DNA of 36,831 nucleotides from Microbacterium sp. (GCA_029239165.1 JAQZBG010000004.1:1-36831), one strand, 5' to 3'. Positions 226 to 35,894 are shown, numbered from the stretch's first letter. Notes: generated by a model not told the origin, from the sequence alone. Program-made: numbers and translations.

Positions 226-2121
226 TCAACCGGGCAGGCCCGCGAGCAGCGGGGCGCACGACTCGTCGATAGTGACGGGGGTGTCGGATGCGGTAGGCGT
301 GTGACGCAGGTCCAGTGGACCCAACGGGCCGCCGGGTAGCTGAACGGTGTACGAGACACTCCTCGTCTCGTCCTGGCCGAGGGTGACCATGCGGCTCTCC
401 CCCGTATTGCCGTTCTCGTTACCGCTTCGCGACAGGGAGGGGATGTCGCCGTCGGCGGGGTCCATCCCGGTGATGGTGGCCCCGGGAGGTGCGAAGAACA
501 ATGTGTCGAGCATCATGGTCGTTCTCGGCAGACCCCAGTTCGGATTGCGGGCTCCGAGAGTGTAGGCATTCGTGATGTCGTCGGTGATGCCGTTGTGCAT
601 CTTCATCGAGACCGAAACCGTCCGCGCATCGGCGTTGCACGTCGCTGAAACCTCGGTGGCGAGATGGTATTCGAGCTTGCTGATGCTGAAGTCGTTCAGG
701 TAGATACCCAGCTGCGTCGACGTCGCGTTGTCAGCGCGCAGCGCTCCGTCGAGCCCCGTCTCGGTGACCAGGGCCTGCGCCTGGTCGTCGGCGAACCACA
801 TGTTGATCCGCTGCTCCTGCGCGCTGCGCGTGAGCTGATCGAACATCGCGATCGGGTTCCAATCGCCGCTTGTGAGACGGGAGAAAACAGAGGACGAGAC
901 CTGGGCGAAGAACTCGTCGGAAGAGCGACCATTGTCGCCGCGGTCCCCGAAGCGCTGGTAGGCGTCGCTGAGGACGAGCTTGACCGCGTTCTCCGCCGTG
1001 ATCTGCTCACCGTCGGGCAGGTCGACCGGGCCGGTGACCTCGAGCATGTGCGACAGCACGACCGGGTCGATCGAGATCACGCCGTCGAACCGCGAACCGT
1101 CCGTGCGATCCCAGAGAGCTTCGAACAGGCGCGCGGTGGTCGGAAAGTCAGGTGTGAAGGTGTAGTCCTGCGAGTAGCGGGTGAACGTATCCGGGTAGAG
1201 CGACCGTGTGCCTTCGGGTAGGTCGACGAACGAGTCGCCCGCTAGACCGGCGGCATAAAAAGCCATGGAGTCTGCCTGCTCTTTGAGCTCCATCCGCCCG
1301 TTATCGACGACGAGCACGCTCGACGCGGCGGGGTTGCCTCCGGTGGCACGGATCTCGGCGTTGTTCTGGAAGAGCACGAGATACGTGCGCGGACCATCGC
1401 CACCCGCCGCCCCCAGCAGGGAAGGGAGGTACTTCTGCACGATCGCGAGCGAGGGCGCCGCTTGATCGACGATCTGCGCCACCTGATCGAGGGGTTCGGT
1501 TACGAGAGGTAGAAGACCGTTTCGGTCGATTCCGTCGGTCACCACCTTCGCATCGGCGAAGGCCGAGGTGATCTCCGGGAGCGAGCCTTCAGCCTGCCGG
1601 AACGGCTCGAGGTTGATGCCGCCACCTTCGATGGCCAAGGAGGAAAAGTCGGATGCAGTCAGCAGAGCCACCGTCGGCGGCAACGCGCGCTGGGTCAGAT
1701 CACGAGTCATCGCGGTCAGCTTCTGCACCGCTTGGGTGTTCTCCCTAACCAGGGGGATGGAGGATGCCAAGTCCCACAGTGGCCCCGAGGATCCGGCATC
1801 CGCTCGCTCGGTGAGTTCGAGCACCTCTCCCGAGACCTGATTCAGACCGTTGATGTCTCGTCCGGCCACGATCTGCGGGACGAACGTCAACTTCGTCTGT
1901 GCGCTCAGCAGATCGGTTCGGACGACGCCGGCCTGCTGCAGGAAGGCAAGCGAGACAGCCGCGACGAGGCAGACCGCGAAACCGAGGACACCCACGGTCC
2001 AGCCGACCATCGTTCCCGCGAGGCGACGTCGCGGGTGTTCGACCGGAGTGGGCTCCGTCGACGAACGGCGGCGGCGCAGCGGGGGCTCGGACGCGGTCGG
2101 CGCGGAGGAAGAGTCGGTCAT
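226..2121 (-). CDS. DUF4012 domain-containing membrane-anchored protein (copy 1)
   Basis: 631 aa; N-terminal TM (MVGWTVGVLGFAVCLVAAVSLAFL), motif YLVLFQNNAEIRATGGNPAASSVLVVDNG and DGVISIDPVVLSHMLEVTGPVDLPDG typical of DUF4012; overlaps upstream gene by ATGA. Confidence 0.9.
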   Translation of the reverse strand: MTDSSSAPTASEPPLRRRRSSTEPTPVEHPRRRLAGTMVGWTVGVLGFAVCLVAAVSLAFLQQAGVVRTDLLSAQTKLTFVPQIVAGRDINGLNQVSGEVLELTERADAGSSGPLWDLASSIPLVRENTQAVQKLTAMTRDLTQRALPPTVALLTASDFSSLAIEGGGINLEPFRQAEGSLPEITSAFADAKVVTDGIDRNGLLPLVTEPLDQVAQIVDQAAPSLAIVQKYLPSLLGAAGGDGPRTYLVLFQNNAEIRATGGNPAASSVLVVDNGRMELKEQADSMAFYAAGLAGDSFVDLPEGTRSLYPDTFTRYSQDYTFTPDFPTTARLFEALWDRTDGSRFDGVISIDPVVLSHMLEVTGPVDLPDGEQITAENAVKLVLSDAYQRFGDRGDNGRSSDEFFAQVSSSVFSRLTSGDWNPIAMFDQLTRSAQEQRINMWFADDQAQALVTETGLDGALRADNATSTQLGIYLNDFSISKLEYHLATEVSATCNADARTVSVSMKMHNGITDDITNAYTLGARNPNWGLPRTTMMLDTLFFAPPGATITGMDPADGDIPSLSRSGNENGNTGESRMVTLGQDETRSVSYTVQLPGGPLGPLDLRHTPTASDTPVTIDESCAPLLAGLPG

Positions 2122-3443
2122 CCCGGGAATTCTCCTGTGCCGCCGTTCGCCGGCGGTTCGGTGAACGTCGGCTGAGGTTCCGGTTCCGGTTCCGGTTCCG
2201 TGGTCGGGTCCGGCGTCGGCTCCGGCGCGGGCGGGGTCGTCGGGTCGGTCGTCGGCGGATCGGACGGCTGCGGGTTCGACGGCTGCTGCTGGTTGCGGGA
2301 CGGCGGATCGCTTTCGCGCTGGGGAGTGCGGGAGCGTTCGTCCTCTTCTTCGGCGGCGCGGAGCTCGAGGACCCGGGTGTTCTCGGCACGCAGCGCGTCG
2401 AGCGCGCTCGCGAACGTCGGCATCTCGGCGAGGCCGTCGCCTCCGGCCAGCTGCGCGGCGCGCACACGGCTCGCCGCTTCCGTCACCGCGGTCCGGAAGC
2501 TGTCGGCGGCGGCATCGTTGCGCGCGACCTCTGCGGCGGCACCGGCTTCGATCGCCGAGCCGACGTTGCGCAGTTCGTTGCGGAAGGCGTCCAAGGCCGA
2601 TACGACCACCGCGCGCGCCTCGCGCACCTGGGACACCATCGGCTGCAGTGCTTCACGCGCGATGCGCACGTCATCGATCGCTTCTGCCACCTGCGTGAGC
2701 GACTTCTCGTCGACTGCCGCCCGGTTGTACTCGGGGACGGAGACGCTCTTGGCTGTACCCGCCACGCTCACGAGCGTGGCGCGGGCGCGACTAGCCGAGT
2801 CGAGCACGCCCTGGTCGACCCGTCCTTGGAGAGTTGCCAGAACGCCTTCACTGGATGCCGCGATGGTGTTGGACTCCGTCAGCGTCGCGGTGTAGAGGTC
2901 CGCAGCCGTTTGGAGCACCTGGGTCTCGTTACGGAGTTCGGCTTCGCGCTCGCGAAGGCTGATCATGGCGTCATCGGCGGGATTGGTGGTCGCTCGCTGG
3001 ACCACTGCGAACGTGGCCGTTCCGGCAAGCAGAACGATCGCGAGCACGGCGATCGCGACGCTGGCGAGATTCACCGCTCCGGCTCGACGCCGACCGTTGA
3101 AGAGGGGACGCCGACCCGGCTGAGAGAGCTCCGGGGCCAGCCACCCGGTATCCGACCCGCTGTTGCTGACCAGAGCCGAAAGTGATTGCGACGCGGAATC
3201 GCGGCGCGAGCGGCGCCCCGGCTCGTCTCCCCCGACGAGCGCGCGAAGGTCGACCGCCGGAGCCGCCTCCGTTTCGGCGGGAGCGCCCACGAGTCCGGTC
3301 AGCGCCTCCAAAAAGGGTTCCGCGTTCTTACTTTGCGCTTCGGGCTCGCCCACGAGACGACGCAAATCACGACCGGGATCTCCGGACGGCACGGGCGCAT
3401 CGGATTGCGCCGTCGGCGCAAACAACGTGCTGAGGTCGTTCAT
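2118..3443 (-). CDS. Single-TM protein with repeated cytoplasmic motif, extracytoplasmic coiled-coil and Pro/Glu/Thr-rich C-terminal tail; unknown function
   Basis: 441 aa; ATG at 3443; one hydrophobic segment (LASVAIAVLAIVLLAGTATFAVV); Ala/Glu-rich helical region; tail PEPTPDPTTEPEPEPEPQPTF. 4-bp overlap with DUF4012 gene implies co-transcription. Confidence 0.85.
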   Translation of the reverse strand: MNDLSTLFAPTAQSDAPVPSGDPGRDLRRLVGEPEAQSKNAEPFLEALTGLVGAPAETEAAPAVDLRALVGGDEPGRRSRRDSASQSLSALVSNSGSDTGWLAPELSQPGRRPLFNGRRRAGAVNLASVAIAVLAIVLLAGTATFAVVQRATTNPADDAMISLREREAELRNETQVLQTAADLYTATLTESNTIAASSEGVLATLQGRVDQGVLDSASRARATLVSVAGTAKSVSVPEYNRAAVDEKSLTQVAEAIDDVRIAREALQPMVSQVREARAVVVSALDAFRNELRNVGSAIEAGAAAEVARNDAAADSFRTAVTEAASRVRAAQLAGGDGLAEMPTFASALDALRAENTRVLELRAAEEEDERSRTPQRESDPPSRNQQQPSNPQPSDPPTTDPTTPPAPEPTPDPTTEPEPEPEPQPTFTEPPANGGTGEFPG

Positions 3444-3598
3444 GAGGTCTCCGGCGCATCAAAGCGCATTTCGATGAATGTCGTAGGGTAGGTCACGGGG
3501 CGCCTGCGCGGCACGACCGTCAAGGGAAGACTACCTTGGAGATCGAAATGCGTATTCTTGCGGCTTCCTGTGCTCTTTAATCAGCGAATGGACGAGGC

Positions 3599-5020
3599 TT
3601 GGAACTGCGCGACTATCTTCGGATTCTGCACCGCAACTGGATTCTCATCCTGGCGTTGACTGTTCTCGGCGGAGCGGGCGCCTTCGGGTGGTCGCTCGTC
3701 CAGGCACCCAGCTACGAGGCGAGCACTCAGTTGTACGTTTCGGTGCGGTCAGACAGCTCCGGTGTGAGCGAACTGGCCCAGGGCACGAGCTTCGCGCGGC
3801 AGGCCGTCGTCAGCTTCGTCGACGTGGTCGACAGCGCGATCGTGCTGGACCGGGTGATCGACGACCTCAACCTCAAGACCACTGCACAGCAACTTGCTTC
3901 GACGATCGACGCATCTTCACCGCAGAACTCGGTGATCATCACCGTGAAAGTGTCCAATCCCGACGCAGAGCTCGCGGCATCCATCGCCAATTCGGTGGGG
4001 AGCAACTTCGCCGAGGTCGTGGTGAATCAGCTTGAGAAGCCCGAGGGCGAGACCGCGAGCCTCGTGCGCGTCGAGACAATCGAGCCCGCCCTCGTCCCCA
4101 CAAGCCCGGCGTCGCCGCGCACGCCGTTGAACGTTGCTCTGGGCATCGCCCTAGGCATTGCGATCGGCCTTGGCGTGGCCGTGCTGCGTTCGGTCCTCGA
4201 CACCCGGATCCACTCGCTTCATGACATCGAGATGGCGACCGAGGCACCCGTGCTTGGCGGTATCGCGCTGGACCCCGACGCGAAGAAGCGTCCGCTCATC
4301 GTCCACGCGGATCCGAAGAACCCGCGTGCCGAATCCTTCCGCAGCCTTCGAACGAACTTGCAGTTCGTCGATGTCGACGGCTCGTCTCGATCGTTTGTGG
4401 TGTCGAGCTCGGGCCCCGGCGAAGGAAAGTCGACCACGACGGCGAACCTCGCGATCGCCCTGGCAGAGACCGGAGCGCGTGTCGCGCTCGTCGACGGCGA
4501 CCTCCGCCTTCCGCGCGTTGCGGACTACATGGGCATCGAGGGCGGCGTCGGCCTCACCGATGTGCTGATCGGCCGCGCCGAGCTCGTCGACGTCCTCCAG
4601 CAGTGGGGTACCGGCAAGCTCTTCGTCCTGCCTTCGGGTCGGACGCCCCCGAACCCCTCCGAACTCCTGGGCAGCCAGGCCATGCAGCGGACGCTGCAGG
4701 CGCTCGAGGGCGCCTTCGACTACGTGCTCATCGACGCTCCCCCGATCCTCGTCGTCACGGACGCCGCCGTCGTTTCGCGCTTCACCAGCGGCGTGCTCAT
4801 GATCGCCGCTTCGGGCACCACGAAGAAGCCCCAGCTCACCGCCGCTGTCGACAAGCTCGACGCGATCGGCAGCCGGTTGTTCGGCGTCATCGTGACGATG
4901 CTCCCGACCAAAGGTCCCGACAGCTACTCGTACGGCTCCTACGCCTATGCGGAGTCCACCGCGGATGCCTCCCCGCAGACGCGCTCGAGGCGCAAGGACA
5001 AGAAGGAGAAGAAGGCGTGA
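3599..5020 (+). CDS. Fused Wzz-type chain-length determinant / bacterial tyrosine kinase (BY-kinase)
   Basis: 473 aa, TTG start; N-terminal Wzz (MELRDYLRILHRNWILILALTVLGG), Walker A SSSGPGEGKSTTTANLA, Walker A' ALVDGDLRLP, Walker B YVLIDAPP, C-terminal Tyr cluster YSYGSYAY. Confidence 0.95.
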   Translation: MELRDYLRILHRNWILILALTVLGGAGAFGWSLVQAPSYEASTQLYVSVRSDSSGVSELAQGTSFARQAVVSFVDVVDSAIVLDRVIDDLNLKTTAQQLASTIDASSPQNSVIITVKVSNPDAELAASIANSVGSNFAEVVVNQLEKPEGETASLVRVETIEPALVPTSPASPRTPLNVALGIALGIAIGLGVAVLRSVLDTRIHSLHDIEMATEAPVLGGIALDPDAKKRPLIVHADPKNPRAESFRSLRTNLQFVDVDGSSRSFVVSSSGPGEGKSTTTANLAIALAETGARVALVDGDLRLPRVADYMGIEGGVGLTDVLIGRAELVDVLQQWGTGKLFVLPSGRTPPNPSELLGSQAMQRTLQALEGAFDYVLIDAPPILVVTDAAVVSRFTSGVLMIAASGTTKKPQLTAAVDKLDAIGSRLFGVIVTMLPTKGPDSYSYGSYAYAESTADASPQTRSRRKDKKEKKA

Positions 5021-5598
5021 CCTTCCGTATCCTCACCGTGTGCACGGGCAACGTCTGCCGGTCTCCTTCGGCGGAGCTGATCCTCGCGCGCGAGCTTTCC
5101 GCCCTGGAGGGCGTCGAGGTGTCGAGCGCGGGGACGGGTGCTCTCGTGGGCGACGGCATCCCGGATCCCGGTCTGCGGCTCCTCGCCGGCGCGGGCATCG
5201 ACGGGACGTCGCACCACGCGCGCCAGCTCACGCCCGCTCTGGTGCAAGAGTCCGATCTCATCCTCGCCATGGCGCGTGAGCACCGCCGCACCATCGTCGA
5301 GCTCGTCCCGGCTGCGACCCGCCGCACCTTCACGGTTCGCGAGCTCGCTCGAGTCGTCGAGCACGTCGACGATTTCGTCGCGGAGGGCGAGTACGCGAAT
5401 GCCGCCGCGCGGATGCGCGCTGCCGTCCTGTATGCGGCCGGTCGGCGAGGACTCGTGCCCCAACCGGCCGATCCGGAGGAACTGGACGTCACCGATCCTT
5501 ACCGACGCTCCGACGAGACATACCAGCTCTCGTACTCCCAAGTCGAGCCGGCGGCGACGGCGGTGGGCGCATACCTCGCCCGCGCCGCACAGGCCTGA
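5017..5598 (+). CDS. Low-molecular-weight protein tyrosine phosphatase
   Basis: GTG start overlapping kinase stop (GTGA); P-loop CTGNVCRS near N-terminus and DP acid motif VTDPYRRS. Contained in ORF 4603..5598. Confidence 0.93.
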   Translation: MTFRILTVCTGNVCRSPSAELILARELSALEGVEVSSAGTGALVGDGIPDPGLRLLAGAGIDGTSHHARQLTPALVQESDLILAMAREHRRTIVELVPAATRRTFTVRELARVVEHVDDFVAEGEYANAAARMRAAVLYAAGRRGLVPQPADPEELDVTDPYRRSDETYQLSYSQVEPAATAVGAYLARAAQA

Positions 5599-13323: not shown

Positions 13324-14970
13324 ATGAACAGCACGATCGCCCGCAAATACACCATCAGCGCTGTGATCGCCGGCGCCATGGTGGCAGCGATTGCGGCATC
13401 GGTCGTCTGGGCGTCGGACGGTCGTAGCGTGGCTGCCGGGGCGACCACCGCCTCCGAGTCCATGTCGGTGACGAGCCCTTCGCTCGTCTTCGGCACGCCC
13501 GCCGGAGTCGACATCACGATCGCGGGATACGGCGGTTCGCTGCAGTGGACCGTCAAGACCCCGTCGGGGAAGGTCGTCGCGTCAGGGTCGGACCCAAGCG
13601 CCCCCACCGCCACCCTCCGTCCCCAGGTGCCCTCGTCCGGTCTGTACGTGCTGGACGCGACGGATCAGAACGGCGAGGTGACGACGAACTTCCTCGTCAC
13701 CGGGCCCGCGCCCTCGACGCCGGACCCGTTCTTCTCCGTCGCCACGCACTGGGGCAAGCAGTCCTTCGCCACCACGACATGGCCACTCGCGAAGACACTT
13801 CCTCTCGTCACCGCCCTGGGGTTCTCACAGGTCAGGGACGAAACATCGTGGGCAAGTGTGGAACCGAATCGTGACTCCTACACGATCCCCGATTTCTCGT
13901 CCTCGTTGTCCGCCGCAACGCAGCAGAGCGGCCTGCACATGATGTTGGTTGCGGCGTACGGGGATCCGCGAGCGTACCCGGAGGACATGAAGGATGCCAT
14001 GTCGCCCCCGACCTCGCAGGACGCACGTGACGGCTATGTGAAGTACATCAACACCGCTCTTGACGCCAACCCGCGCATCGACGAGGTCGAGGTCTGGAAC
14101 GAGTTCAATCGTCCCAAACGGAACACGAGTTCCTGCCAGAGCGGGGCCTGTTACGCCGCGCTCGTCCAGGCGGTCTCGCAAGGGGTCAAAGCCGCGCACC
14201 CCACCGTGCAGATCGTGGCCGGCGACACCGCCGGCACCCCGATCTCCTGGTTCCAGCAATTCATCGACGCCGGAGGGCTTTCCTACGCCGACGCCATCTC
14301 GACGCACGGGTACTCGAAGGACACGGGCACCCTCCGTGAGAGCATCACGCACCTGGACGACCTGATCAAACAGCACAACGGAGGTGTCTCGAAGCCCATC
14401 ATCGTCAGCGAAGACGGCCTCACGAACGCCCCGGCGGCACCCACGGACTCGAACGTCAGCAGGGTCGATACGCAGCAACAGGCGGCTTCCGGGCTGGTGA
14501 AGATCTTCGTGACCCTGAAGTCGATTCCAGCGGTGTCGCAGGTCGTCTGGTACGACGCCCTCGACGACGGCACCAACGCCACCGACCCCGAGTCCGATTA
14601 CGGCCTGTTCCGTCAGCCGACGCCATCGATCTCCGCCTTCGAGCCCAAGCTCGCTGCCGCGGCCGCGAGCGAGCTCATTCGCCAGCTCAGCGGATACAGC
14701 CTCACCTCCGCCACAACGCCAGCCCCTGCCGTATCCGAGTTCCTCTTCAACGGACCTGACGGTTCGACACGACGCGTGCTGTGGAAGGACGCTCCCTTCG
14801 CGGCGAAGGATTCGGCTGCCACGAGCGTTCCCGTGACAGCCGGCGGCGGTGACCGAACGACGGTCACCGCCGTCTCCGGGGAGAAGATCCGCGACCTCCC
14901 GGCCGGCGCCTCCACTCTCGACGTCGGCACCCAGCCGATCTACGTCGACGAGAGCCCCTCCGCCGGGTGA
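13324..14970 (+). CDS. Secreted clan GH-A-like glycoside hydrolase (GH39/GH5-like TIM barrel)
   Basis: 548 aa; N-terminal signal/anchor; EVEVWNEFNRPKR (acid/base NE) and KPIIVSEDGL (candidate nucleophile). Confidence 0.75.
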   Translation: MNSTIARKYTISAVIAGAMVAAIAASVVWASDGRSVAAGATTASESMSVTSPSLVFGTPAGVDITIAGYGGSLQWTVKTPSGKVVASGSDPSAPTATLRPQVPSSGLYVLDATDQNGEVTTNFLVTGPAPSTPDPFFSVATHWGKQSFATTTWPLAKTLPLVTALGFSQVRDETSWASVEPNRDSYTIPDFSSSLSAATQQSGLHMMLVAAYGDPRAYPEDMKDAMSPPTSQDARDGYVKYINTALDANPRIDEVEVWNEFNRPKRNTSSCQSGACYAALVQAVSQGVKAAHPTVQIVAGDTAGTPISWFQQFIDAGGLSYADAISTHGYSKDTGTLRESITHLDDLIKQHNGGVSKPIIVSEDGLTNAPAAPTDSNVSRVDTQQQAASGLVKIFVTLKSIPAVSQVVWYDALDDGTNATDPESDYGLFRQPTPSISAFEPKLAAAAASELIRQLSGYSLTSATTPAPAVSEFLFNGPDGSTRRVLWKDAPFAAKDSAATSVPVTAGGGDRTTVTAVSGEKIRDLPAGASTLDVGTQPIYVDESPSAG

Positions 14971-14997: not shown

Positions 14998-17900
14998 TCA
15001 GCCCGCGGGAACGTTCTCCTGAATGGTGAGGGTCGGCGCGGTTGCTTCTCCTGCTTCTTTCGAGTTGAAGCGGGACATCAGCGCTTCGGGCGTCGTCGCG
15101 ACGGTACCCCCGAGCGCGATCGAGATCCGCTTCGTCCCCGCCGGGAGTTTCTTGATGTACTCCGTCAGGTCGATCTTCCACGTCTTCGCTTCGCGCGTCA
15201 CGGTGAAGGACGCGATACGCTGCCCGAGCTGGGGTCGGTTGGCGTACGTCGTCGTCGACTCCGACCACGACCCGGACACCGTGTAGATATCGACCGTGCC
15301 CTGCGTCTTGCTCGGGTCATCGATGAGGGAACCGTAGAGCGCCAGCGTGGCGGACTTCGTCGATGCGGGTGTCGTACCGGTGAGGTCGAAGGTCAGATAC
15401 GAGGTGCGGATGTTCCCCCCGTCCGCGGCCGAGCCTGGAGACTGCGGCTTGACGTCGAGCCGGTTGAGTCCGCCCAGCGTCGTGTCGGCCGTCCCCCCAC
15501 CCTGCGAGAACGTGTCCCCGTCCGTGCGGATCGTGAACAGGCCCGGCTGATAGACGGTGACCGCCGTGGTGAAACTCCGCGACAGCGGGCCCTGGGAAAC
15601 GGTCGTCGTGATGTTCGCGACGCCCGTCGCGCGTCCCGTGAGGCGCCCATCGGTGCCCACCGACACCACGGACGTGGAATCAGAGACGTGTTTCACCTGC
15701 GCCTTGTCGATCGTCGCCCCAGTGATGTCGACGACCTTCACGGGAACACCCACCGTCTGCCCGATCGCGATCTTCGCAGGCATCGAAACCGTGGCATCCG
15801 CGAAGAGACGGTCCGGCAGAGCGGCCGGCGGCGAACCCGGGGACAGAAGCTCGACCTCGCGGAGAACGGCTTGCCAGGTCGACGAGCTCGAGACGAGCTC
15901 GAGGCGCACCTGCGTGACCTTCCGGGAGAACCGGAAGGAGTGATCCGCTGTCCCCGGACCCCCGCTGTAGGTATACGTCCCCTCGTTGTTCCAGCTCTTG
16001 CCATCCGACGACGTGAGCAGCTTGAAACTGACCTTCTGGCTCGCATCCGGGCTCCACGCGGCTCGGACCGTCTTCAACAGCGTCGCCTGCGGCAGGACCC
16101 AGGTGATCGTGGCACCGCCGCGACCGGCCCACCCCGTGGACGTGGACCCGTCGTGCGTCGCCGCCGACGTTCCGCGCAGAGTGTTGGTCGCCGACGACGT
16201 GGACACCGTGGCCTTGGCAGGAGCCAGGACGATCTCCAGGCGGGGTGGGGTCGACGACTCGGAGCTGCCGAAGCGGGCCATCAGCGCGGCATTGTCGGGG
16301 GCGCTGCCCCCGAGCGCGAGATCGAACGCCGACAACTGCGCGCTCGGCGTCTTCTTGGCCGCGTCGGTGAGATCGAGGCGTGACTCCCCGGTCTGTCGGG
16401 TCACCAGCGTGCTCCCGAGCGGCGCGCCGAAACCGGGACGATTCTGGTACGTGACGGTCGTGTCGGTCCAGGTGCTGGCGGGTCGATATGCGTCGACACG
16501 AACGGCATCACCACCCGCACTGTCGGCGATTGCGCCGGTCAGCACGAGGACGGCGCTCGCGATGCGAGTCGTGTCTACACCAGAGAGATCGAAGCGCAGG
16601 AGGCTGGTACGCACGCGGGTACCATCAGACGGCGTCGCGGGAAGGGTCGGCTTCACGTCGAGTCGGTCGGCGCCGGCGAAATTCTTCGATGCACTGGCTC
16701 CCCCCTCCACGAAGGTGTCCTGCACCGGCAGGAGCGACAAGGCTTGAGACGGCACCACGGTCAGCGCTCGGGCCGGTGAGGGGAACTCCCACGCCCCCAC
16801 TCGGGCATATGCACCGAGGACGGTAGAGCCCGGGGCCGCGCCGACAGCGCCCGTACCGTCGATCCGGGCGACGCCTCTATTGCCCGATACGAGCTCGATC
16901 TGCGCGTTCGCGGCCGCTCCGCTTATCGTGACGCCGAGCGGCGCCCATTCCTCGACGGCGAGCGTTGACGGGCCATTCGCCGACGATACCCCCCATGCCC
17001 CGGGCGTGAGGTTGGCCGGTGCAGGCGTCCCCCGGAATCCGGATATCGCGATCTCTCGAATTGTCGAGGTACGGTCCCCGCCGGGGTCGCCCGAGACCTC
17101 GATGCGGATCTTCGACACCCGTGGGGGCGAGTCGATGGTGTTCGACGACCACCCGGACGCGGAGCGATAGCTGCCGGACGCTGCCGCAGCCCACGTGTCG
17201 TTTTTCGGGATCAGGATGCGATAGTCGATCCGCCGCGACGAGTTCGCCGTCCAAAGGATGTCCACCTTGTTGAGGTCGATCTGGCCTCGGAACGTCAGCT
17301 CGAGGTACTGCACGCCCGAGGTCGCCCAGCCCGACGACTCGTTGCCATCGTGCGCGGCCCCCGGGGTGCCCCGCGTCGTCGACGACGCCGTCGATGTTTT
17401 GACGGCCGTCAGGTCGGGAACGAATGTGACCAAAACGCCTGTGGCGAGATCACTTCCGACGAGGTACGAGCCGGGCATGGATGTCGTCGCCCGCACCGAA
17501 ACAGTACCGCCGGAGGTGTTGCGCGCCACGATTTTGGGCGCAGGAAGCGCCGGGTCGCGCATCACCGTGTAGGAGCGTCGACTCGCGTTGAATCCCTGGA
17601 GCCCCGCCCCGTCCACCGTCAGCCGCGACAGCTGGACCGCAGCTTCGGGGGCACTCCCCCATCCGTTCATCGCCGTGACCTGACCGGCGCGAGAGGCCGT
17701 GGTCGCGGTGGGCGCCAGCAAGGTCATCGTCACCGCCACCGTCTGCGCCGATCCGCCGGGGACATCGACAACGAGCTTCGTGACGCCCGTGTTCTCGTCC
17801 TGTTCCGGCCGCGGGGAGATCGGGGAGGGAACCGCCGGCGTGGCTCGGAACCGCACTCCACTGGAGGCGGAGAGTTCGACGAGGAGGCGCTGACCGTCCT

Positions 17901-19593
17901 TGTAGAGGACGGCAGATCTTCCGGTCTGCGTGATCTCCACCTGGGCGGAGGTGTGCAGGCCCCACCGCGATGTCGTGCCCGCAGGCGCAGTGAACTCGTC
18001 TTGCAGGACCACCTGTTGCGACGTGGGAAGGACGCGCACTCCTCGGCGCCATGTACCTGCCGCGGCTCCCTGGGCCGCGCTGAGGTCCGCCACGGCGAAC
18101 GACCCGACCGCGCTCGTACCGGACGACAACAAGCTCCCACCCGGCGCGTCTCGGAAGTCATGGGTGGAATCGCGGTCCAACGTGAGGGTGTTGTGGCCTT
18201 CCAGCCTGTTGCGGTAGTAGTTCCACCGTTCGGACACAGCGCCGCCGTTGCCCCGCGCGTCGTAGCTGGATCGATCGAGGCCGAGTTGCTGCGCCCAGGT
18301 GACTCCCCCCACGGACACCATGACGTCCCCCGCGTCGACGTGTCTGTGGCCTACTGTGGGGTCACCGCCGTAGCGCAGGGCCGCGTAGGGGGCCCTGACA
18401 TCCGTGGCGTCTCCACGCGCCGTCGCGACGCCACCGTCCGCATAGTTCGCGACCCGCGGCCGCGATTGTGAAGCCGGTGCGACCGGGGGAACCGACGGAT
18501 TCCGCCATACGAGGCGCTGCGCCGCCTGACGACTCGTCTCGTTCGCGGCGGACAGCCCCTCCAGGGACGTGTCGCCCGTCAACCGCGCGAGACCGGAGAA
18601 CTCCATTGCTGGGGACACAGCCGTCTCGCTGTCCGCAAACGTGAAAATATCTCCCGACGGGGTCATCAGATCTCGGATGAAGGCCCCGCTGCGCGCGATC
18701 CCGCCGATCCCATCGAGCCCCTGGGTGGAACCGGTCGCGGTCTTCAGCGCATTCAAGAATGTGCTGGCGTACTCGGTCGCGTACTCCCAGTACATGGGTC
18801 CTTCGGGATAACTGCCGTCCGGAAGGTAACCGGTCAGACCGCTCTTGATGGACTCGATCGAGTAGTCGAGCACCTTCTGCGCGTCACCACTCGTATCTTC
18901 GGAAACGATCGCGAGGCTCGCGAGTCCCACACCGCCGTTTCCGACGACGTTCCGGTTGTGCGTCGCTGTCACCCACGAGTTCGGGTCGCTCTCGGGTGAC
19001 TCATACAGGGGAATAGCGGGGCGAATGGCTTTTGTCAGCATCGCGTTGCGAAGGGTCGCGCGGCGCGCGTCCGTCCAGTAGCTGTAGCCCCAGTCGTACG
19101 AGATCGCGAAGGCGTTGGCGATCTCCGCGGTGTGCAGGAAGTTCTTCGGGTTCCAGTCCGGAAACTTGCTTGCTGCGTCGAGGTTCTTCCACAGACCTTC
19201 CATGTACTTCGCGTCGTTCGTCAGCCGCCACGCCATCGAAAGGGTGTAGGACCGCTCGACGAGATACTTCGCCGTCGTCAGAGTGCTCTCTGGATTCTGC
19301 AGGTCGTACGACACGACGGGCAGCGTGAGCTGGTAGTTCGCGGAGTTGAGGACGTCCTTTTGCAGGCGCGCGGAAACGGCATCTGTCCCGGTGTTGGAAC
19401 GAATCGTGGCGAAGTCGTTGGCGCTCGAGACGAGAAGTCGCGGATGACTCGTGGCGACCGACACGGCGGCCGGGACGGCCGCGATCGCAGCGGGGGCAGG
19501 AACGGCGATGTCAGCCATGAGCACCGCACCCATAAAGAGGGATGCAGCCAGCATGGCCCACTTTCGCCGCGAAGAGGACGGTGTGGCGCGCAT
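14998..19593 (-). CDS. Secreted heparinase II/III-like (alginate-lyase-fold) polysaccharide lyase with duplicated F5/8C-like, Ig-like and DNRLRE/CBM96-like domains
   Basis: ORF 14998..19638; likely ATG at 19593 (MRATPSSSRRKWAMLAASLFMGAVLMADIAVPAPA signal peptide). SHPRLLVSSANDF, HNRNVVGNGGVGLASLAI, YPEGPMYWEYATEY, GHRHVDAGDVMVSVGG, GHNTLTLDRD typical of this lyase fold. Confidence 0.85.
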   Translation of the reverse strand: MRATPSSSRRKWAMLAASLFMGAVLMADIAVPAPAAIAAVPAAVSVATSHPRLLVSSANDFATIRSNTGTDAVSARLQKDVLNSANYQLTLPVVSYDLQNPESTLTTAKYLVERSYTLSMAWRLTNDAKYMEGLWKNLDAASKFPDWNPKNFLHTAEIANAFAISYDWGYSYWTDARRATLRNAMLTKAIRPAIPLYESPESDPNSWVTATHNRNVVGNGGVGLASLAIVSEDTSGDAQKVLDYSIESIKSGLTGYLPDGSYPEGPMYWEYATEYASTFLNALKTATGSTQGLDGIGGIARSGAFIRDLMTPSGDIFTFADSETAVSPAMEFSGLARLTGDTSLEGLSAANETSRQAAQRLVWRNPSVPPVAPASQSRPRVANYADGGVATARGDATDVRAPYAALRYGGDPTVGHRHVDAGDVMVSVGGVTWAQQLGLDRSSYDARGNGGAVSERWNYYRNRLEGHNTLTLDRDSTHDFRDAPGGSLLSSGTSAVGSFAVADLSAAQGAAAGTWRRGVRVLPTSQQVVLQDEFTAPAGTTSRWGLHTSAQVEITQTGRSAVLYKDGQRLLVELSASSGVRFRATPAVPSPISPRPEQDENTGVTKLVVDVPGGSAQTVAVTMTLLAPTATTASRAGQVTAMNGWGSAPEAAVQLSRLTVDGAGLQGFNASRRSYTVMRDPALPAPKIVARNTSGGTVSVRATTSMPGSYLVGSDLATGVLVTFVPDLTAVKTSTASSTTRGTPGAAHDGNESSGWATSGVQYLELTFRGQIDLNKVDILWTANSSRRIDYRILIPKNDTWAAAASGSYRSASGWSSNTIDSPPRVSKIRIEVSGDPGGDRTSTIREIAISGFRGTPAPANLTPGAWGVSSANGPSTLAVEEWAPLGVTISGAAANAQIELVSGNRGVARIDGTGAVGAAPGSTVLGAYARVGAWEFPSPARALTVVPSQALSLLPVQDTFVEGGASASKNFAGADRLDVKPTLPATPSDGTRVRTSLLRFDLSGVDTTRIASAVLVLTGAIADSAGGDAVRVDAYRPASTWTDTTVTYQNRPGFGAPLGSTLVTRQTGESRLDLTDAAKKTPSAQLSAFDLALGGSAPDNAALMARFGSSESSTPPRLEIVLAPAKATVSTSSATNTLRGTSAATHDGSTSTGWAGRGGATITWVLPQATLLKTVRAAWSPDASQKVSFKLLTSSDGKSWNNEGTYTYSGGPGTADHSFRFSRKVTQVRLELVSSSSTWQAVLREVELLSPGSPPAALPDRLFADATVSMPAKIAIGQTVGVPVKVVDITGATIDKAQVKHVSDSTSVVSVGTDGRLTGRATGVANITTTVSQGPLSRSFTTAVTVYQPGLFTIRTDGDTFSQGGGTADTTLGGLNRLDVKPQSPGSAADGGNIRTSYLTFDLTGTTPASTKSATLALYGSLIDDPSKTQGTVDIYTVSGSWSESTTTYANRPQLGQRIASFTVTREAKTWKIDLTEYIKKLPAGTKRISIALGGTVATTPEALMSRFNSKEAGEATAPTLTIQENVPAG

Positions 19594-19686
19594 GTGGACT
19601 CCGATTTGCAGTAGCTGGCGCGAATGTGTCGCACGCATCCACGGCTTAGCTCAGGGAGCGTCGCAGGTCCAATGTAATTCAGCTAA

Positions 19687-28449: not shown

Positions 28450-30216
28450 TCAGCCGCAGGACACCTCGGTGATGTGCGAGGGCACCGGGTTGACCATCGG
28501 GGTGTGCACCAGCGACACGTCGTCGCTGTTGTCGGGCGACCCCTCGAACGTCACGCTCAGCGAGTGGGTCGTCTGCGGGTCGTTCGTCGAGAACAGGCGA
28601 GCGACCGGACGACCGAGGTGCTCCCCCGTGGTCACCGGCACGTCGACGCCGTCGAAGCTCGCCTTGACGAACGTCGCGCCGCTCGGCCCGTAGAACTGCA
28701 TGTCGGTTCCGATCGTGCCCTTGGGGAAATGCTTGCCCCCGTCGACGTACCGCACGAGACCATCCGAGGTGGCACGGTCGAGCGCGTTGGTGAACGTCAC
28801 CGTCGTCGTGTAGGTGGGAACGGCCGAGCAGCGGTTCACCGAGACATCGGCCGACATCCAGGTGTAGTAGCTCAGCTTCGCCTCGGTGAGGTCGTTGATG
28901 AAGACCCCCAGCGTCGTCTGCTGGTCGCCGTCGGTCGAGGGCAGGGGGCCGAGAAGTCGCGAATCAGCGAAGGCGGCGCGCGTGGTGTCGTCGAAGGAGT
29001 AGAAGTACACGCGGTGCTCATCGACGGCGCGCACCAGCGCGGTCGCGAACGAGACCGGGGCGAAGTCGCCGGACGACACCGCGTCGAAGACCTCGACGGC
29101 GGCCGACGCGAAGAACGCGTCCTGGTCGGCGTTGTCGGGGTAGCGGGCGTACACGTCGCTGAGCAGAATTTTCACGGCATCGGAGGACGTCAGCTGGTCG
29201 CCCGTGGCGAGGGTGATCGGGCCGGTCGCGTCGAGGAGGTAGGACAGCGTCACGGGATCGATCGACATGACGCCGTCGACGGGCGTGCCGAACGACTCCG
29301 CCCAGTAGGCACGGGCGAAGTCCGCCGACATCGCGAAGTCGGGGGTCGACGTGATGTCCTGCGAGTAGCGACCGATCTTGTCGTCGTAGAGCTTCACCAC
29401 CTCGGGGTCGAGCGGCAGGATCGACTCCTTGCGCGTGTTCTTGAAGTCACGACTGGTGGCCTGCTGGGCGATCTCCATCTTGCCGTTCTCGACCTTGAGG
29501 AGGACTACGGATGCCGGGATGCCCCCGGCGCCTCGCGCTTCGGCGTTGTTCTGCACGAGGAGGAGGTAGTTCTTGGTCCCCTCCGCGCCCATCAGGGAGG
29601 GGAGGACGGGCATCAGCTCGACCGCACGGGACAGCGCGGGCTGGAGCCCTCGGACCACGCCGGTCAGCTGACCGAGGGGTCCCTGCAGCACGCCCGGTGT
29701 GTCGGCGACGTCGACGTCGCGGACGGCTCCTGCGGCACGATCCGCAGCGGAAGAGGCCTCCGACAGCGGACCGGAGAGCTGCAGGATCGCCGCCACGTCG
29801 AACGCGCCGTCCTTGGGGCGCAGGAGAGCGGGATCCACGTTCGCGAGCGCGGGGAGCGCGCCCTGCGCCAGCTCGTCCACGGCGACGGTCGACTCCCGCA
29901 CCGCGTGCAGGGTCGGACCGACGAAGGGTGCCTGCTCCGCGAGCTGCCACATCCACGTGTCGGCCGCACCGCGGGCGCGAGACGCGTGCCCCTGGAGCTC
30001 GGTGATGGAGGATGCCAACGCTGTGCGGTCGTCGCTCCCGAATTGGCTCTGCATTTTCGACACGAGCGGCACCGCCGCGCGCAGTTCCTTCTGAGCGACG
30101 AACCCGCCGACGGCGACAGACGCAGCGAGCGCGATGAGCACCGCCGTCAGTGCTCCGAGGGCGAGCCAGGCGATCACCGCGGGGCGGAGTCGACGGGGCG
30201 TAGCAGTTCGCGACAT
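28450..30216 (-). CDS. DUF4012 domain-containing membrane-anchored protein (copy 2)
   Basis: ORF 28450..30264; likely ATG 30216 (MSRTATPRRLRPAVIAWLALGALTAVLIALAASVAVGGF); YLLLVQNNAEARGAGGIPASVVLLKVENG, DGVMSIDPVTLSYLLDATGPI shared with copy 1. Confidence 0.9.
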   Translation of the reverse strand: MSRTATPRRLRPAVIAWLALGALTAVLIALAASVAVGGFVAQKELRAAVPLVSKMQSQFGSDDRTALASSITELQGHASRARGAADTWMWQLAEQAPFVGPTLHAVRESTVAVDELAQGALPALANVDPALLRPKDGAFDVAAILQLSGPLSEASSAADRAAGAVRDVDVADTPGVLQGPLGQLTGVVRGLQPALSRAVELMPVLPSLMGAEGTKNYLLLVQNNAEARGAGGIPASVVLLKVENGKMEIAQQATSRDFKNTRKESILPLDPEVVKLYDDKIGRYSQDITSTPDFAMSADFARAYWAESFGTPVDGVMSIDPVTLSYLLDATGPITLATGDQLTSSDAVKILLSDVYARYPDNADQDAFFASAAVEVFDAVSSGDFAPVSFATALVRAVDEHRVYFYSFDDTTRAAFADSRLLGPLPSTDGDQQTTLGVFINDLTEAKLSYYTWMSADVSVNRCSAVPTYTTTVTFTNALDRATSDGLVRYVDGGKHFPKGTIGTDMQFYGPSGATFVKASFDGVDVPVTTGEHLGRPVARLFSTNDPQTTHSLSVTFEGSPDNSDDVSLVHTPMVNPVPSHITEVSCG

Positions 30217-30399
30217 CTCATTCCGTTCACGCCGCGAGTTGGCACCCGGCGTAGCGCGCGACAAAGTCCAGCCGCGCAGATGGGTATGCTACCTGAGTCG
30301 GGTGCAACGTCTGCTGGGCACATTCTGGTGCGCGGACCCCGTTCTGCGCTCGACCTTCCTGCCCCCCGACAGACGAGGAGACGCGTGGGATCTCGACGT

Positions 30400-32256: not shown

Positions 32257-33353
32257 CGAGACGACGTCGCCGCGGCATCGTCATCCATCCCTCAGACGAG
32301 ATGTACGGGGCCGATCGCGTGCTGCTCGAGGTCGTGCGCACCGCTCCTGATGACCTCGATCTCGAGGTCTGGCTCCCCACGGACATCGACTACCCCGAGC
32401 GCCAACTCTCACGCGCGCTCGCTGAGCGCGGCATCCGGGTCCGTCGTCTCGCGCTGCCGATCATGCGACGGGCATACCTCACTCCTCGGAGGCTCCCGGG
32501 TCTCGCCCTGCGCACGCTGGTCACGGCGGGCAGGATCATCGCGGCGCGCCCCGCCCTGGTGTACCTCAACACGGCCGCCGCCGCCCTCGCGGCCCCGGCA
32601 TCCCGCCTGTCCGGTGCGCGCGTCGTCCTGCACCTGCACGAGCACATCGACGCGCGCTCTCGCGCCGTCGTGCCGTTCCTGCGGTTCGCCCACCGCATCA
32701 TCGCGGTCAGCGCCGCCGTGGCGGAAGCGTTGCCGACGACGTTCCGCGGACGCACGCGCGTGGTGCACAACGGCTTCGAGGTCGCGGCCCCTGTCTTGCT
32801 CCCCCCGTTCGACGACGGCATCCGTCTGGTGATCGCCAGTCGCTGGAACGCCTGGAAGGGGCACCGTGTGCTGCTGGAGGCCTGGGACCGGACTCGGCGC
32901 GATGACCTGCATCTGACGATCCTCGGCGACGCTCCCCTCAGCGGTGAGGCCGTGGACGTGCGCGAGATCGTCGCACGCTCCACTCGTCGCGAACAGCTCG
33001 ACGTCATCGGGCGCACCGACGACGTGCGCGGGCATGTGGATCGCGCCCACGTCGTCGTCGTGCCCAGCATCCTGCCCGACCCGTTGCCCACGATCGCGAT
33101 CGAGGCCCTCGGTGCCGGCCGCGCGGTCCTCGCGAGTGACGACGGCGGCCTTCCCGAGATCGTCGGCGACCAGCGCTTCCTGGTGGATGCCGGAGACGTC
33201 GATCAGTGGACCGCCGCGCTCGAGAGCCTGGACCCGGAGACGATCCGGGAGGCCGCGGATGCCGCGCGTCCCCGCTTCGAGCGCCTCTTCGCGCGAATCG
33301 CCTTCGACCGACTCATCCACGACGAGCTCTGGTCGGAGGTGCCGGTACGGTGA
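32253..33353 (+). CDS. Glycosyltransferase family 4
   Basis: GTG start 32253 overlapping previous stop; GIVIHPSDEMYGADRVLLEVV; SRWNAWKGHRVLLEAW; DPLPTIAIEALGAGRAVLASDDGGLPEIV. Confidence 0.88.
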   Translation: MTRRRRRGIVIHPSDEMYGADRVLLEVVRTAPDDLDLEVWLPTDIDYPERQLSRALAERGIRVRRLALPIMRRAYLTPRRLPGLALRTLVTAGRIIAARPALVYLNTAAAALAAPASRLSGARVVLHLHEHIDARSRAVVPFLRFAHRIIAVSAAVAEALPTTFRGRTRVVHNGFEVAAPVLLPPFDDGIRLVIASRWNAWKGHRVLLEAWDRTRRDDLHLTILGDAPLSGEAVDVREIVARSTRREQLDVIGRTDDVRGHVDRAHVVVVPSILPDPLPTIAIEALGAGRAVLASDDGGLPEIVGDQRFLVDAGDVDQWTAALESLDPETIREAADAARPRFERLFARIAFDRLIHDELWSEVPVR

Positions 33354-34684
33354 GATCCCCGCATACCTCTGTCGACCCCGTCCTGAGCCCGCGCGTCCGC
33401 ACCATCACCTCGGTCCTGATCGCGGCGGTCGTCCTGAGTTCGTTCGTCGGACGCTACGACCTGCCGATAGCGGGCTTCCGCGTGCGCATCGAGCAGGTCG
33501 TGCCTCTCCTGCTCGTCGCCTGGATGGTGGGACACCCGGTGCTGAGGCGAGCCTTCCTCCGCGCCGCCCGGCATCCTGTGCCGCTGGTCTATGCCGCCTT
33601 CGTGGCGTGGAACGTGGTGACCACCCTGGTGTTCTCGCCCAGCCTCGGCTGGAGTGCATCGATCTTGATCTGGCTGACGATCGATCTGCTCCTGCTGATC
33701 TCGCTGATGGCACTGACCCAGGGGGCGAACCTGGCCGAGCGCCTCGGCCGCCTTTCGGTCGCACCCTGGGCGCTGGTCGGGTTCACCGCCTTCGCGGTGG
33801 CCAACCTCACGCGCGGCCGGGTGTCTTTCGGTGCCGACTTCGACTACCTGTACGAGGTCTATGTCGCGCGCGCGACCGCGATCGAGGCGAACATCTATGC
33901 GTCGATCCTCGTCTTCTGGACCCTGCTCGCCATCACCCGGCGCGGTCTCTCACGCATGGAGATCGCGGCGATCGCGATCGCCGTTCCACTGGGCCTGATC
34001 GCATCGCAGACGCGAACGGCTGTGTTCAGCCTCCTGCTGGGGCTCGTCGTCTTCGCCGCCTACACTCTCGTGACAGATCGACTCCCGGCACGGGAACGCT
34101 GGCGCCGGATACTTCCCGCCGCGATCGTCGCCTGCACGGTCGTCTTCTCCTACGGAGTCCTCGCTGCCTCGGGTGGCACCGCACCGGCGGATCGCACGCT
34201 GAGCGGGACGTCCTCCCCGTCGCCCGGGGCGACACGCGAGCCCGACCCCAGCAATCCCGAGCAGCAGAACAAGATCGGAGACATCGACTTCGACGGTGGA
34301 ACGATCGGGTTCCGCATCACGGTCGCTGAACTCGCGGCCGAAGACATGCACGGCGTCAAGCTGTGGTTCGGAAACGGCACGAACACCTTCGGCCTCCGCC
34401 ACGAACAGCCGGGTACTCCGGGGGTGACCGGGCACATCATCATGCTCCCCGTCCAGGTGCTCTACGACGGAGGCATCGTCGGGCTCGGGTTGCTCGGGGC
34501 ATTCTTCGTGACTGTCTACGCCTGCGTCCCAAGACGACGTCGGCCCGTCGCGGCCGGCCTGCTCGCCGCCTACGTGCTCTCGGCGACGCTCACGAGCATG
34601 TTCTGGTTCGCCGTGACCTGGATCCTCGTCGCCGTCCTCGTCCGGCCTGAATCAGCGTCCGAACGTGACCTCGGCGACGCCTGA
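33350..34684 (+). CDS. O-antigen ligase/polymerase family membrane protein (second Wzy-like)
   Basis: GTG start 33350; multi-TM; LIASQTRTAVFSLLLGLVVF, large loop with WFGNGTNTFGLRHEQPG, VLYDGGIVGLGLLGAFF. Confidence 0.82.
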   Translation: MRSPHTSVDPVLSPRVRTITSVLIAAVVLSSFVGRYDLPIAGFRVRIEQVVPLLLVAWMVGHPVLRRAFLRAARHPVPLVYAAFVAWNVVTTLVFSPSLGWSASILIWLTIDLLLLISLMALTQGANLAERLGRLSVAPWALVGFTAFAVANLTRGRVSFGADFDYLYEVYVARATAIEANIYASILVFWTLLAITRRGLSRMEIAAIAIAVPLGLIASQTRTAVFSLLLGLVVFAAYTLVTDRLPARERWRRILPAAIVACTVVFSYGVLAASGGTAPADRTLSGTSSPSPGATREPDPSNPEQQNKIGDIDFDGGTIGFRITVAELAAEDMHGVKLWFGNGTNTFGLRHEQPGTPGVTGHIIMLPVQVLYDGGIVGLGLLGAFFVTVYACVPRRRRPVAAGLLAAYVLSATLTSMFWFAVTWILVAVLVRPESASERDLGDA

Positions 34685-35894
34685 CCCCCCTCAGCCGCAT
34701 CGCGCTCGCAGCGTGGTGTTGCTCACCGCGGTGTCGGCTCTCTCGGCGATCTCCCCCCTCATCGCCTTGCCGCTCATCAGCCGGGCGGCTGGTCCCACCG
34801 GCTTCGCCGAGATCGCGATCGGTCAAGCGCTGGGAACGCTGGCAGCCACGCTCATCACGTTCGGCTGGGCTGTTCGCGGACCCGTCGAAGCAGCGCGCTC
34901 GACACACCCCGCCCGCGTCTTCCGCGCGAGCGTGGCGGTGCGCGGCGCGAACAGCGTCGTGGCCCTCCCCGCGGTCGCGGTGGTCGCGGCGATCGCGAGC
35001 CATTCCCCCGACCATGCTCTCGCCGTCGTGTCCGCGCTGGCCTTCGCCCTGCAGGGGCTGTCACTGAGCTGGTATGCGGTCGGCGTCGGACGCCCGACGC
35101 TCGCCCTGGCCTTCGACGCCCTGCCACGCATCATTCTCAACCTCGCGGGCGCGGTACTCGCCCTCGCGGTCGGTCAGGCTCTGGTCTACCCCGTCGTCCT
35201 CCTGATCGGGACGCTCGTCGCGTTCCTCGTCGCGACGTGGGCCATCGGTTTTCGGGAACGGTTCTCGGTGCGCGTCACCCTCTCAGACGCGGCCGCGTCG
35301 TATCGGGGCGGGTGGCGCACGGCGACGGCGGCGGCTCTCCTGACGTTCTCCGAGACGGCGCCCCTCTCGACGCTCGGCGTCGCGGGCTCGCCCGCAGCGG
35401 TCGCTTTCGCGCCCTTCGACCGCGTGCTCAAGTACGGCTACATCGGCGTTTACATGATCTCGTCGTCCTTCCAGGGCTGGGTGTCGTCCGCTCATGGAGC
35501 GGCGGGTCTGCATCGCATGCGGCGCGCCGTCGGCATCCACGCGGTCCTGGGCCTGGTCCTGGGAACGCTGTTCGCCACAGTCACCCCATGGGCGACGCCC
35601 ATCGTGCTGGGAGACGGATTCGCGATCGCCCCGCTCACCGCTCTGTTCGGGGGGATCGCGCTCGCAGCGATGACCGTGGGGACGGCCTTGGGCGTGTGCG
35701 TCGTCCTCCCGGCGGGGCGCGACCGTTCTTACCTGGTGGCGGTCGGGGTGGGCGCGCTCCTCGTCATACCCGCCGTGCTGACCGGCGCAGCGTTCGTCGG
35801 TGTCGCGGGCGCGGCGGGAGCCGTGGCAGTCGTCCAGCTCGCCGTCCTCACCGCGCTCGGGCGGGCCGCATTCCCCACCCTCCGCGGACGCTGA
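34665..35894 (+). CDS. Polysaccharide flippase / MOP-superfamily (second Wzx-like)
   Basis: 409 aa polytopic; VVLLTAVSALSAISPLIALPLISRAAGPTGFAEIAIGQALGTLAATLITFGW; GTG start overlapping upstream ORF by 20 bp. Confidence 0.85.
   Translation: MTSATPDPPQPHRARSVVLLTAVSALSAISPLIALPLISRAAGPTGFAEIAIGQALGTLAATLITFGWAVRGPVEAARSTHPARVFRASVAVRGANSVVALPAVAVVAAIASHSPDHALAVVSALAFALQGLSLSWYAVGVGRPTLALAFDALPRIILNLAGAVLALAVGQALVYPVVLLIGTLVAFLVATWAIGFRERFSVRVTLSDAAASYRGGWRTATAAALLTFSETAPLSTLGVAGSPAAVAFAPFDRVLKYGYIGVYMISSSFQGWVSSAHGAAGLHRMRRAVGIHAVLGLVLGTLFATVTPWATPIVLGDGFAIAPLTALFGGIALAAMTVGTALGVCVVLPAGRDRSYLVAVGVGALLVIPAVLTGAAFVGVAGAAGAVAVVQLAVLTALGRAAFPTLRGR

What the first reader, a model, noticed from the sequence alone, without database searches (positions are those of the whole stretch)
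226..5598. Candidate undescribed EPS assembly/attachment unit: DUF4012 + single-TM coiled-coil partner divergent from Wzz-kinase and LMW-PTP
The DUF4012 gene and its partner overlap by 4 bp (ATGA) and sit back-to-back with the kinase/phosphatase. Both have an N-terminal TM and large extracytoplasmic region; the partner adds a long helical stalk and a Pro/Glu wall-spanning-like tail. No LCP ligase or outer-membrane-type exporter is in the window, so this pair is a plausible extracytoplasmic handling or wall-attachment factor. DUF4012 function is uncharacterised to my knowledge.
Basis: inference. Interest (0 to 1): 0.6.

Follow-up and report, generated by a model that had tools for sequence, protein, structure and literature searches.

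The report
Hidden LCP-fold protein in polysaccharide loci
A bacterial membrane protein family of unknown function (DUF4012), found beside sugar-polymer (slime or capsule) genes, turns out to have the same predicted fold as the enzymes that attach such polymers to the cell wall, but with those enzymes' known catalytic residues replaced, which gives an unnamed family a testable job.

Summary
DUF4012 (226-2121, -) overlaps a single-TM coiled-coil gene (2118-3443, -) by ATGA, divergent from a Wzz-type tyrosine kinase (3599-5020) and an LMW-PTP (5017-5598). The genome is a Microbacterium. Main result: a confident AlphaFold2 model of the DUF4012 core (pLDDT 92) matches the LCP (LytR-Cps2A-Psr) fold. 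The 31 best PDB hits are all LCP structures (best E 6e-5, probability 1.00). A profile-profile alignment is co-linear over the whole domain and beats 300 of 300 shuffled profiles. Pfam does not detect this, and no paper in the library links the two. LCP's catalytic Asp/Arg set is replaced; DUF4012 has its own near-invariant E256, R258, D352, Y388. DUF4012 neighbourhoods hold polysaccharide genes in 147 of 160 cases (5 of 20 controls). Its cytosolic tail carries 3-6 copies of an LxxLVG motif in close relatives (about 0.02 expected). Most likely role: DUF4012 is a divergent LCP-fold factor acting outside the membrane on lipid-linked polysaccharide (attachment, termination or release); the chemistry is untested.

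The parts
226..2121 (-). DUF4012 protein, 631 aa: N-terminal TM anchor, helical stalk, LCP-fold core, C-terminal beta-rich domain
   Evidence: PF13196 E 3e-44; AF2 full-length model pLDDT 89.2, pTM 0.85
1942..2019 (-). predicted TM helix (residues 35-60) after an Arg-rich cytosolic leader
   Evidence: sequence and model secondary structure; topology inferred
1408..1941 (-). extracytoplasmic helical stalk, residues 61-238
   Evidence: AF2 model
730..1422 (-). LCP-fold core, residues 234-464
   Evidence: AF2 core model pLDDT 92.4, pTM 0.88; Foldseek top 31 PDB hits all LCP; hhalign
1348..1356 (-). E256 and R258 codons, beta1-beta2 loop, nearly invariant; same loop as the Mg-binding Asp residues of LCP
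   Evidence: 99% and 96% in 224 sequences
1066..1068 (-). D352 codon, invariant; aligns with the conserved Asp of the LCP VDF motif (90%)
958..960 (-). Y388 codon, 99% conserved, on the helix that carries R362/R364 in LCP
229..729 (-). C-terminal beta-rich domain, residues 465-631, with invariant K482
2118..3443 (-). partner: single-TM protein with cytosolic motif tail, extracytoplasmic coiled-coil stalk and Pro/Glu-rich tail
   Evidence: no Pfam hit; 14 of 58 related genomes, one genus; neighbours
3075..3443 (-). partner cytosolic tail, residues 1-123, with LxxLVG-type repeats (LRRLVG, LEALTG, LTGLVG, LRALVG)
   Evidence: 4 motifs against 0.03 expected in shuffles; 3-6 in near relatives
3444..3598 (.). 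divergent intergenic region shared by the two units
   Evidence: ATGTCGTAGGGTAG-like stretch recurs in homologous intergenic regions; role inferred
3599..5020 (+). Wzz-type chain-length regulator fused to a BY-kinase with a C-terminal Tyr cluster (SYSYGSYAYAE)
   Evidence: TIGR01007 over cut-off; PF02706 Wzz
5017..5598 (+). low-molecular-weight protein tyrosine phosphatase
   Evidence: PF01451 E 8.5e-24
28450..30264 (-). second DUF4012 gene of the window, about 30% identical, next to a second polysaccharide gene set
   Evidence: PF13196 E 1e-43; A1 identity

Best explanation
DUF4012 proteins are membrane-anchored, extracytoplasmic proteins whose core has the LCP (LytR-Cps2A-Psr) fold. They sit in Wzx/Wzy/Wzz-type polysaccharide loci. 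The most likely mechanism: after Wzx flips and Wzy polymerises the lipid-linked repeat units, with Wzz-kinase and PTP setting chain length, the DUF4012 core binds the lipid-linked polymer in an LCP-like site. There it carries out or assists the last step: transfer to a cell-surface acceptor, or release from the lipid. It would do so with its own residue set (E256, R258, D352, Y388) instead of the LCP Arg/Asp set. The coiled-coil partner is a separate accessory of the Wzz-kinase: its cytosolic tail offers several LxxLVG docking motifs and its stalk reaches into the wall. In the M. testaceum clade it has become an operon neighbour of DUF4012. Shown: the genes, predicted fold, conservation and neighbourhoods. 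Inferred: substrate, chemistry, and any role of the motifs.
For: Core model confident and its 31 best PDB matches are all LCP structures, E from 6e-5, probability up to 1.00, TM (query) up to 0.53; the next fold is Hsp70 at E 0.086, probability 0.12. hhalign aligns DUF4012 with LCP co-linearly over the domain; score 24.9 against a maximum of 22.2 in 300 block-shuffled LCP profiles and 19.9 in 14 other real families. Shared conserved positions: D352 with the VDF Asp, G364 with the following Gly, R258 with an LCP Arg. Architecture TM - accessory - core - C-terminal domain parallels LCP proteins (PMC7831098). Polysaccharide genes in 147/160 DUF4012 neighbourhoods against 5/20 controls. DUF4012 and Wzz co-occur across 297 genomes (80 of 93 against 114 of 204, p 2e-7). 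Partner beside the Wzz-kinase in 11 of 13 distinct loci with intact context.
Against: Every LCP catalytic position is replaced (D234 to N, D246 to G/A, R267 not conserved, R362 to L, R364 to D/E, R374 to D), so LCP chemistry as known is unlikely. The full-length model showed no LCP entry among its listed hits and the profile score on its own is weak (E about 0.003-0.008, probability 5-11%). A genus-conserved third DUF4012 sits about 1 kb from a real LCP gene, so it is not simply a replacement for LCP there. No biochemical or genetic data exist in the papers searched.
Confidence: 0.62

Rival explanations
1. DUF4012 is a catalytically dead LCP-fold protein: it binds the lipid-linked polymer or the Wzz/Wzy complex as a co-polymerase or scaffold and performs no chemistry.
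For: All LCP metal and arginine positions are lost. Wzz lies within 1.5 kb in 17 of 40 phylum-wide neighbourhoods. Long helical stalk, as in chain-length regulators.
Against: Its own polar set E256, R258, D352, Y388 is 96-100% conserved across 224 sequences in the loops that form the LCP site, which is unusual for a dead enzyme.
Confidence: 0.25
2. DUF4012 and the coiled-coil protein form one dedicated two-protein machine.
For: Overlapping genes in the M. testaceum clade.
Against: The partner is restricted to one genus and often lies kilobases from DUF4012 while staying beside the Wzz-kinase; most DUF4012 genes have no such partner.
Confidence: 0.08
3. The LCP resemblance is a convergent or artefactual fold match, and DUF4012 is an unrelated polysaccharide-locus protein.
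For: Low identity (8-17%) and moderate TM-scores (0.37-0.53); no Pfam cross-match apart from one noise-level hit.
Against: 31 consecutive hits to one family among 350,542 chains, full-domain coverage, and an independent sequence-profile signal in the same register.
Confidence: 0.05

Closest known systems
LCP family (LytR-Cps2A-Psr, PF03816): Cps2A, TagT/U/V, S. aureus LcpA, A. oris LcpA
   Same: Predicted core fold, strand and helix order, N-terminal TM plus accessory region, extracytoplasmic side, polysaccharide context, the VDF-type Asp and following Gly
   Different: No Pfam-level similarity; the Mg-binding Asp pair and the catalytic Arg set are replaced; extra C-terminal beta-rich domain; own conserved E256, R258, Y388, K482
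DUF4012 (PF13196), including BL105A_0406 of the B. longum 105-A EPS locus
   Same: It is a member; the same neighbours (priming transferase and Wzz) are listed in PMC5412050
   Different: Known only as an 'auxiliary protein' with no fold or mechanism; Pfam covers 144 residues, whereas the homologous region spans about 600
Wzz/BY-kinase with LMW-PTP (Wzc/Wzb-like)
   Same: Window genes 3599-5598 are a normal fused Wzz-kinase and phosphatase
   Different: A divergent coiled-coil protein with cytosolic LxxLVG repeats next to them has no described counterpart in the libraries searched

Membership tests
LCP (LytR-Cps2A-Psr) | alpha-beta-alpha LCP fold | tested here: met
   Predicted model only: Foldseek top 31 hits all LCP; co-linear profile alignment
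LCP (LytR-Cps2A-Psr) | match to the PF03816 profile above its cut-off | tested here: not met
   0 of 101 members; one noise-level hit at E 0.073
LCP (LytR-Cps2A-Psr) | Mg-binding Asp pair (Cps2A D234, D246) | tested here: not met
   Aligned columns are N (91%) and G/A
LCP (LytR-Cps2A-Psr) | catalytic Arg residues (Cps2A R267, R362, R374; A. oris LcpA R149, R266) | tested here: not met
   Aligned columns unconserved, L and D/N; roles from PMC7831098 and PMC6381275
LCP (LytR-Cps2A-Psr) | single N-terminal TM with extracytoplasmic core | tested here: met
   Sequence and model; topology inferred from the Arg-rich leader
LCP (LytR-Cps2A-Psr) | hydrophobic polyprenyl tunnel and phosphotransferase or pyrophosphatase activity | not testable with these tools
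   No coordinates given out; needs biochemistry
DUF4012 (PF13196) | profile match above the gathering score | tested here: met
   151 bits against a cut-off of 28
Wzz / BY-kinase | Wzz domain, Walker-type kinase domain, Tyr cluster | tested here: met
   PF02706, TIGR01007; Tyr cluster in sequence

The most novel reading that the evidence does not exclude
DUF4012 is a second, unrecognised branch of LCP-fold glycopolymer transferases with a different active site, found in about a third of sampled actinobacterial genomes, each copy serving its own polysaccharide locus.
Probability: 0.45. Interest if true: 0.8.

Novelty: new variant of a known kind. Interest (0 to 1): 0.62.

Why it matters
How actinobacterial capsules and EPS are terminated, attached or released after Wzx/Wzy is largely open. 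DUF4012 is present in 93 of 297 sampled genomes of the phylum and in 43 of 58 relatives, with up to four copies, and had no mechanism. An LCP fold with a swapped residue set gives named residues to mutate and a substrate class to test. It would extend a family studied as an antibacterial target.

Tried and rejected
Full-length DUF4012 model against PDB: no LCP entry in the listed hits, only noise; cutting to the core resolved it. Sequence search of PDB with both profiles: nothing relevant. All-against-all BLAST to build decoy families: timed out, replaced by shuffled profiles and 14 families. 'DUF4012 replaces LCP in its locus': weak support only (LCP in 1 of 48 Wzz+DUF4012 neighbourhoods against 4 of 20 Wzz loci without DUF4012, p 0.024, taxa not matched), and contradicted by the genus-conserved DUF4012/LCP locus. 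An 11-bp inverted repeat in the divergent intergenic region (3465, 3542) is not seen in relatives' intergenic regions and was dropped. LCP co-occurrence across genomes is uninformative: 294 of 297 have one.

Full report
OBSERVATION. DUF4012 runs 226-2121 (-) and overlaps the partner (2118-3443, -) by ATGA; the Wzz-kinase (3599-5020, +) and LMW-PTP (5017-5598, +) are divergent from them. The PTP start is GTG 5017, overlapping the kinase stop. The window also holds a second DUF4012 (28450-30264, -) with a second set of polysaccharide genes, including a Wzy-like gene (33206-34684; below the Pfam cut-off) and, by position, a possible Wzx-like gene (34665-35894; no Pfam hit). A third copy lies on contig C137. 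A record with a 100% identical DUF4012 is a Microbacterium MAG (JARBUN010000005.1), and the nearest named relatives with the whole quartet are M. testaceum.

FOLD. The Pfam model covers only 144 residues, but about 600 residues align across 57 members. The full-length AF2 model is good (pLDDT 89.2, pTM 0.85): a TM helix, a helical stalk to residue 238, an alpha/beta core at about 245-445 and a beta-rich C-terminal domain. Searched whole, it showed nothing significant in PDB and no LCP entry among the 50 listed hits. The order of elements in the core (three strands, helix, strand, helix, strand-like turn, two helices) looked like LCP, and a first profile comparison chose that register. The core alone (residues 234-464, 101 sequences) was therefore modelled: pLDDT 92.4, pTM 0.88. 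Foldseek against 350,542 PDB chains returned LCP structures as its first 31 hits: 3pe5 (E 6e-5), Cps2A with octaprenyl pyrophosphate (2xxq, 3tfl, 3tep), TagV, TagU, TagT, S. aureus LcpA and A. oris LcpA. The first unrelated hit was Hsp70 at E 0.086, probability 0.12. LCP identity rests on entry titles plus my own knowledge for the structural-genomics entries whose titles do not say LCP (3pe5, 3nxh, 3owq, 3okz, 3qfi and similar).

SEQUENCE SUPPORT. hhalign of the DUF4012 core against an LCP profile gave E 0.003-0.008 and low probability, which alone would not convince. The score exceeded all 300 block-shuffled LCP profiles and 14 real families from the same neighbourhoods. Relaxed, the alignment is co-linear from the first strand to the end of the domain. 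Pfam's own LCP model does not detect DUF4012, so the link is not available from standard annotation.

ACTIVE SITE. On that alignment LCP's functional residues (PMC7831098, PMC6381275) are replaced in DUF4012: D234 to N, D246 to G/A, R267 unconserved, R362 to L, R364 to D/E, D371 to R/K, R374 to D/N. Conserved instead are E256 (99%), R258 (96%), G262 and D352 (100%), and Y388 (99%). E256 and R258 lie in the loop that carries the Asp pair in LCP. D352 matches the Asp of the LCP VDF motif and Y388 sits on the helix of R362/R364. Alignment in the loops is less certain than in the beta4-alpha2 part. Membership in the LCP enzyme family is therefore not claimed; 'LCP-fold, divergent site' is.

CONTEXT. 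Among 160 neighbourhoods (159 with DUF4012; genus, phylum and named genomes, partly overlapping sets), 147 hold polysaccharide genes and 105 hold Wzz, Wzx, Wzy or a priming transferase, against 5 and 2 of 20 control regions (p 1e-10 and 2e-6, treating loci as independent, which they are not fully). Wzz presence and DUF4012 presence are associated over 297 genomes. DUF4012 next to a priming transferase and Wzz also holds in B. longum 105-A (PMC5412050). A third DUF4012 type is conserved with an LCP gene about 1 kb away in this genus. LCP is otherwise rare near DUF4012.

PARTNER. By sequence the partner is confined to one genus in the sampled relatives (14 of 58 genomes). Of 13 distinct loci with intact context, 11 have the Wzz-kinase immediately beside it and divergent, and a twelfth has the PTP. 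DUF4012 abuts it on the same strand only in the M. testaceum-type clade (counts made by removing duplicate records). Its cytosolic tail carries 3-6 LxxLVG-type motifs in near relatives, against about 0.02 per shuffled tail, fading to 1 or 0 in distant ones. The tail ends in a conserved stretch before the TM. I infer an adaptor or scaffold of the Wzz-kinase with multivalent docking motifs.

VERDICT. The pair as a unit is a clade-specific arrangement. The general result is that DUF4012 is an LCP-fold family in polysaccharide loci. No paper in the library links the two.

Noticed in passing
window 28450-30264 and neighbours to 36 kb: A second DUF4012, only about 30% identical to the first, sits with its own polysaccharide gene set (Wzy-like and possible Wzx-like genes); the same block (Wzx2, Wzy2, GT4, hexapeptide transferase, DUF4012, GtrA, GT2, VanZ) recurs in L274 and L279.
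   Followed up: partly
window 3075-3443 (-): Cytosolic tail of the coiled-coil protein with repeated LxxLVG short motifs next to a BY-kinase; possible multivalent docking tail.
   Followed up: partly
window 14998-19638 (-) and 13324-14970 (+): A 1546-aa secreted heparinase II/III-like lyase with F5/8-type and CBM96 modules, and a glycosyl-hydrolase-like protein, lie inside the polysaccharide locus; a similar lyase lies near partner or DUF4012 in L116 and L125. Possible self-polysaccharide processing or release enzymes.
   Followed up: no
G000:C137:27858-28283, L126, L134, L140, L142, L146: A genus-conserved locus pairs a third DUF4012 type with a true LCP gene about 1 kb away; in this draft genome the two orthologues are on separate contigs (C137, C67).
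   Followed up: partly
L207-L286, many Curtobacterium and Microbacterium loci: VanZ-family genes lie near DUF4012 in 37 of 80 named neighbourhoods, within 1.5 kb in 24; unexplained.
   Followed up: no
window 3444-3598 and homologous intergenic regions: A stretch like ATGTCGTAGGGTAG recurs in the divergent intergenic region of most quartet loci; probably a promoter or operator element.
   Followed up: partly
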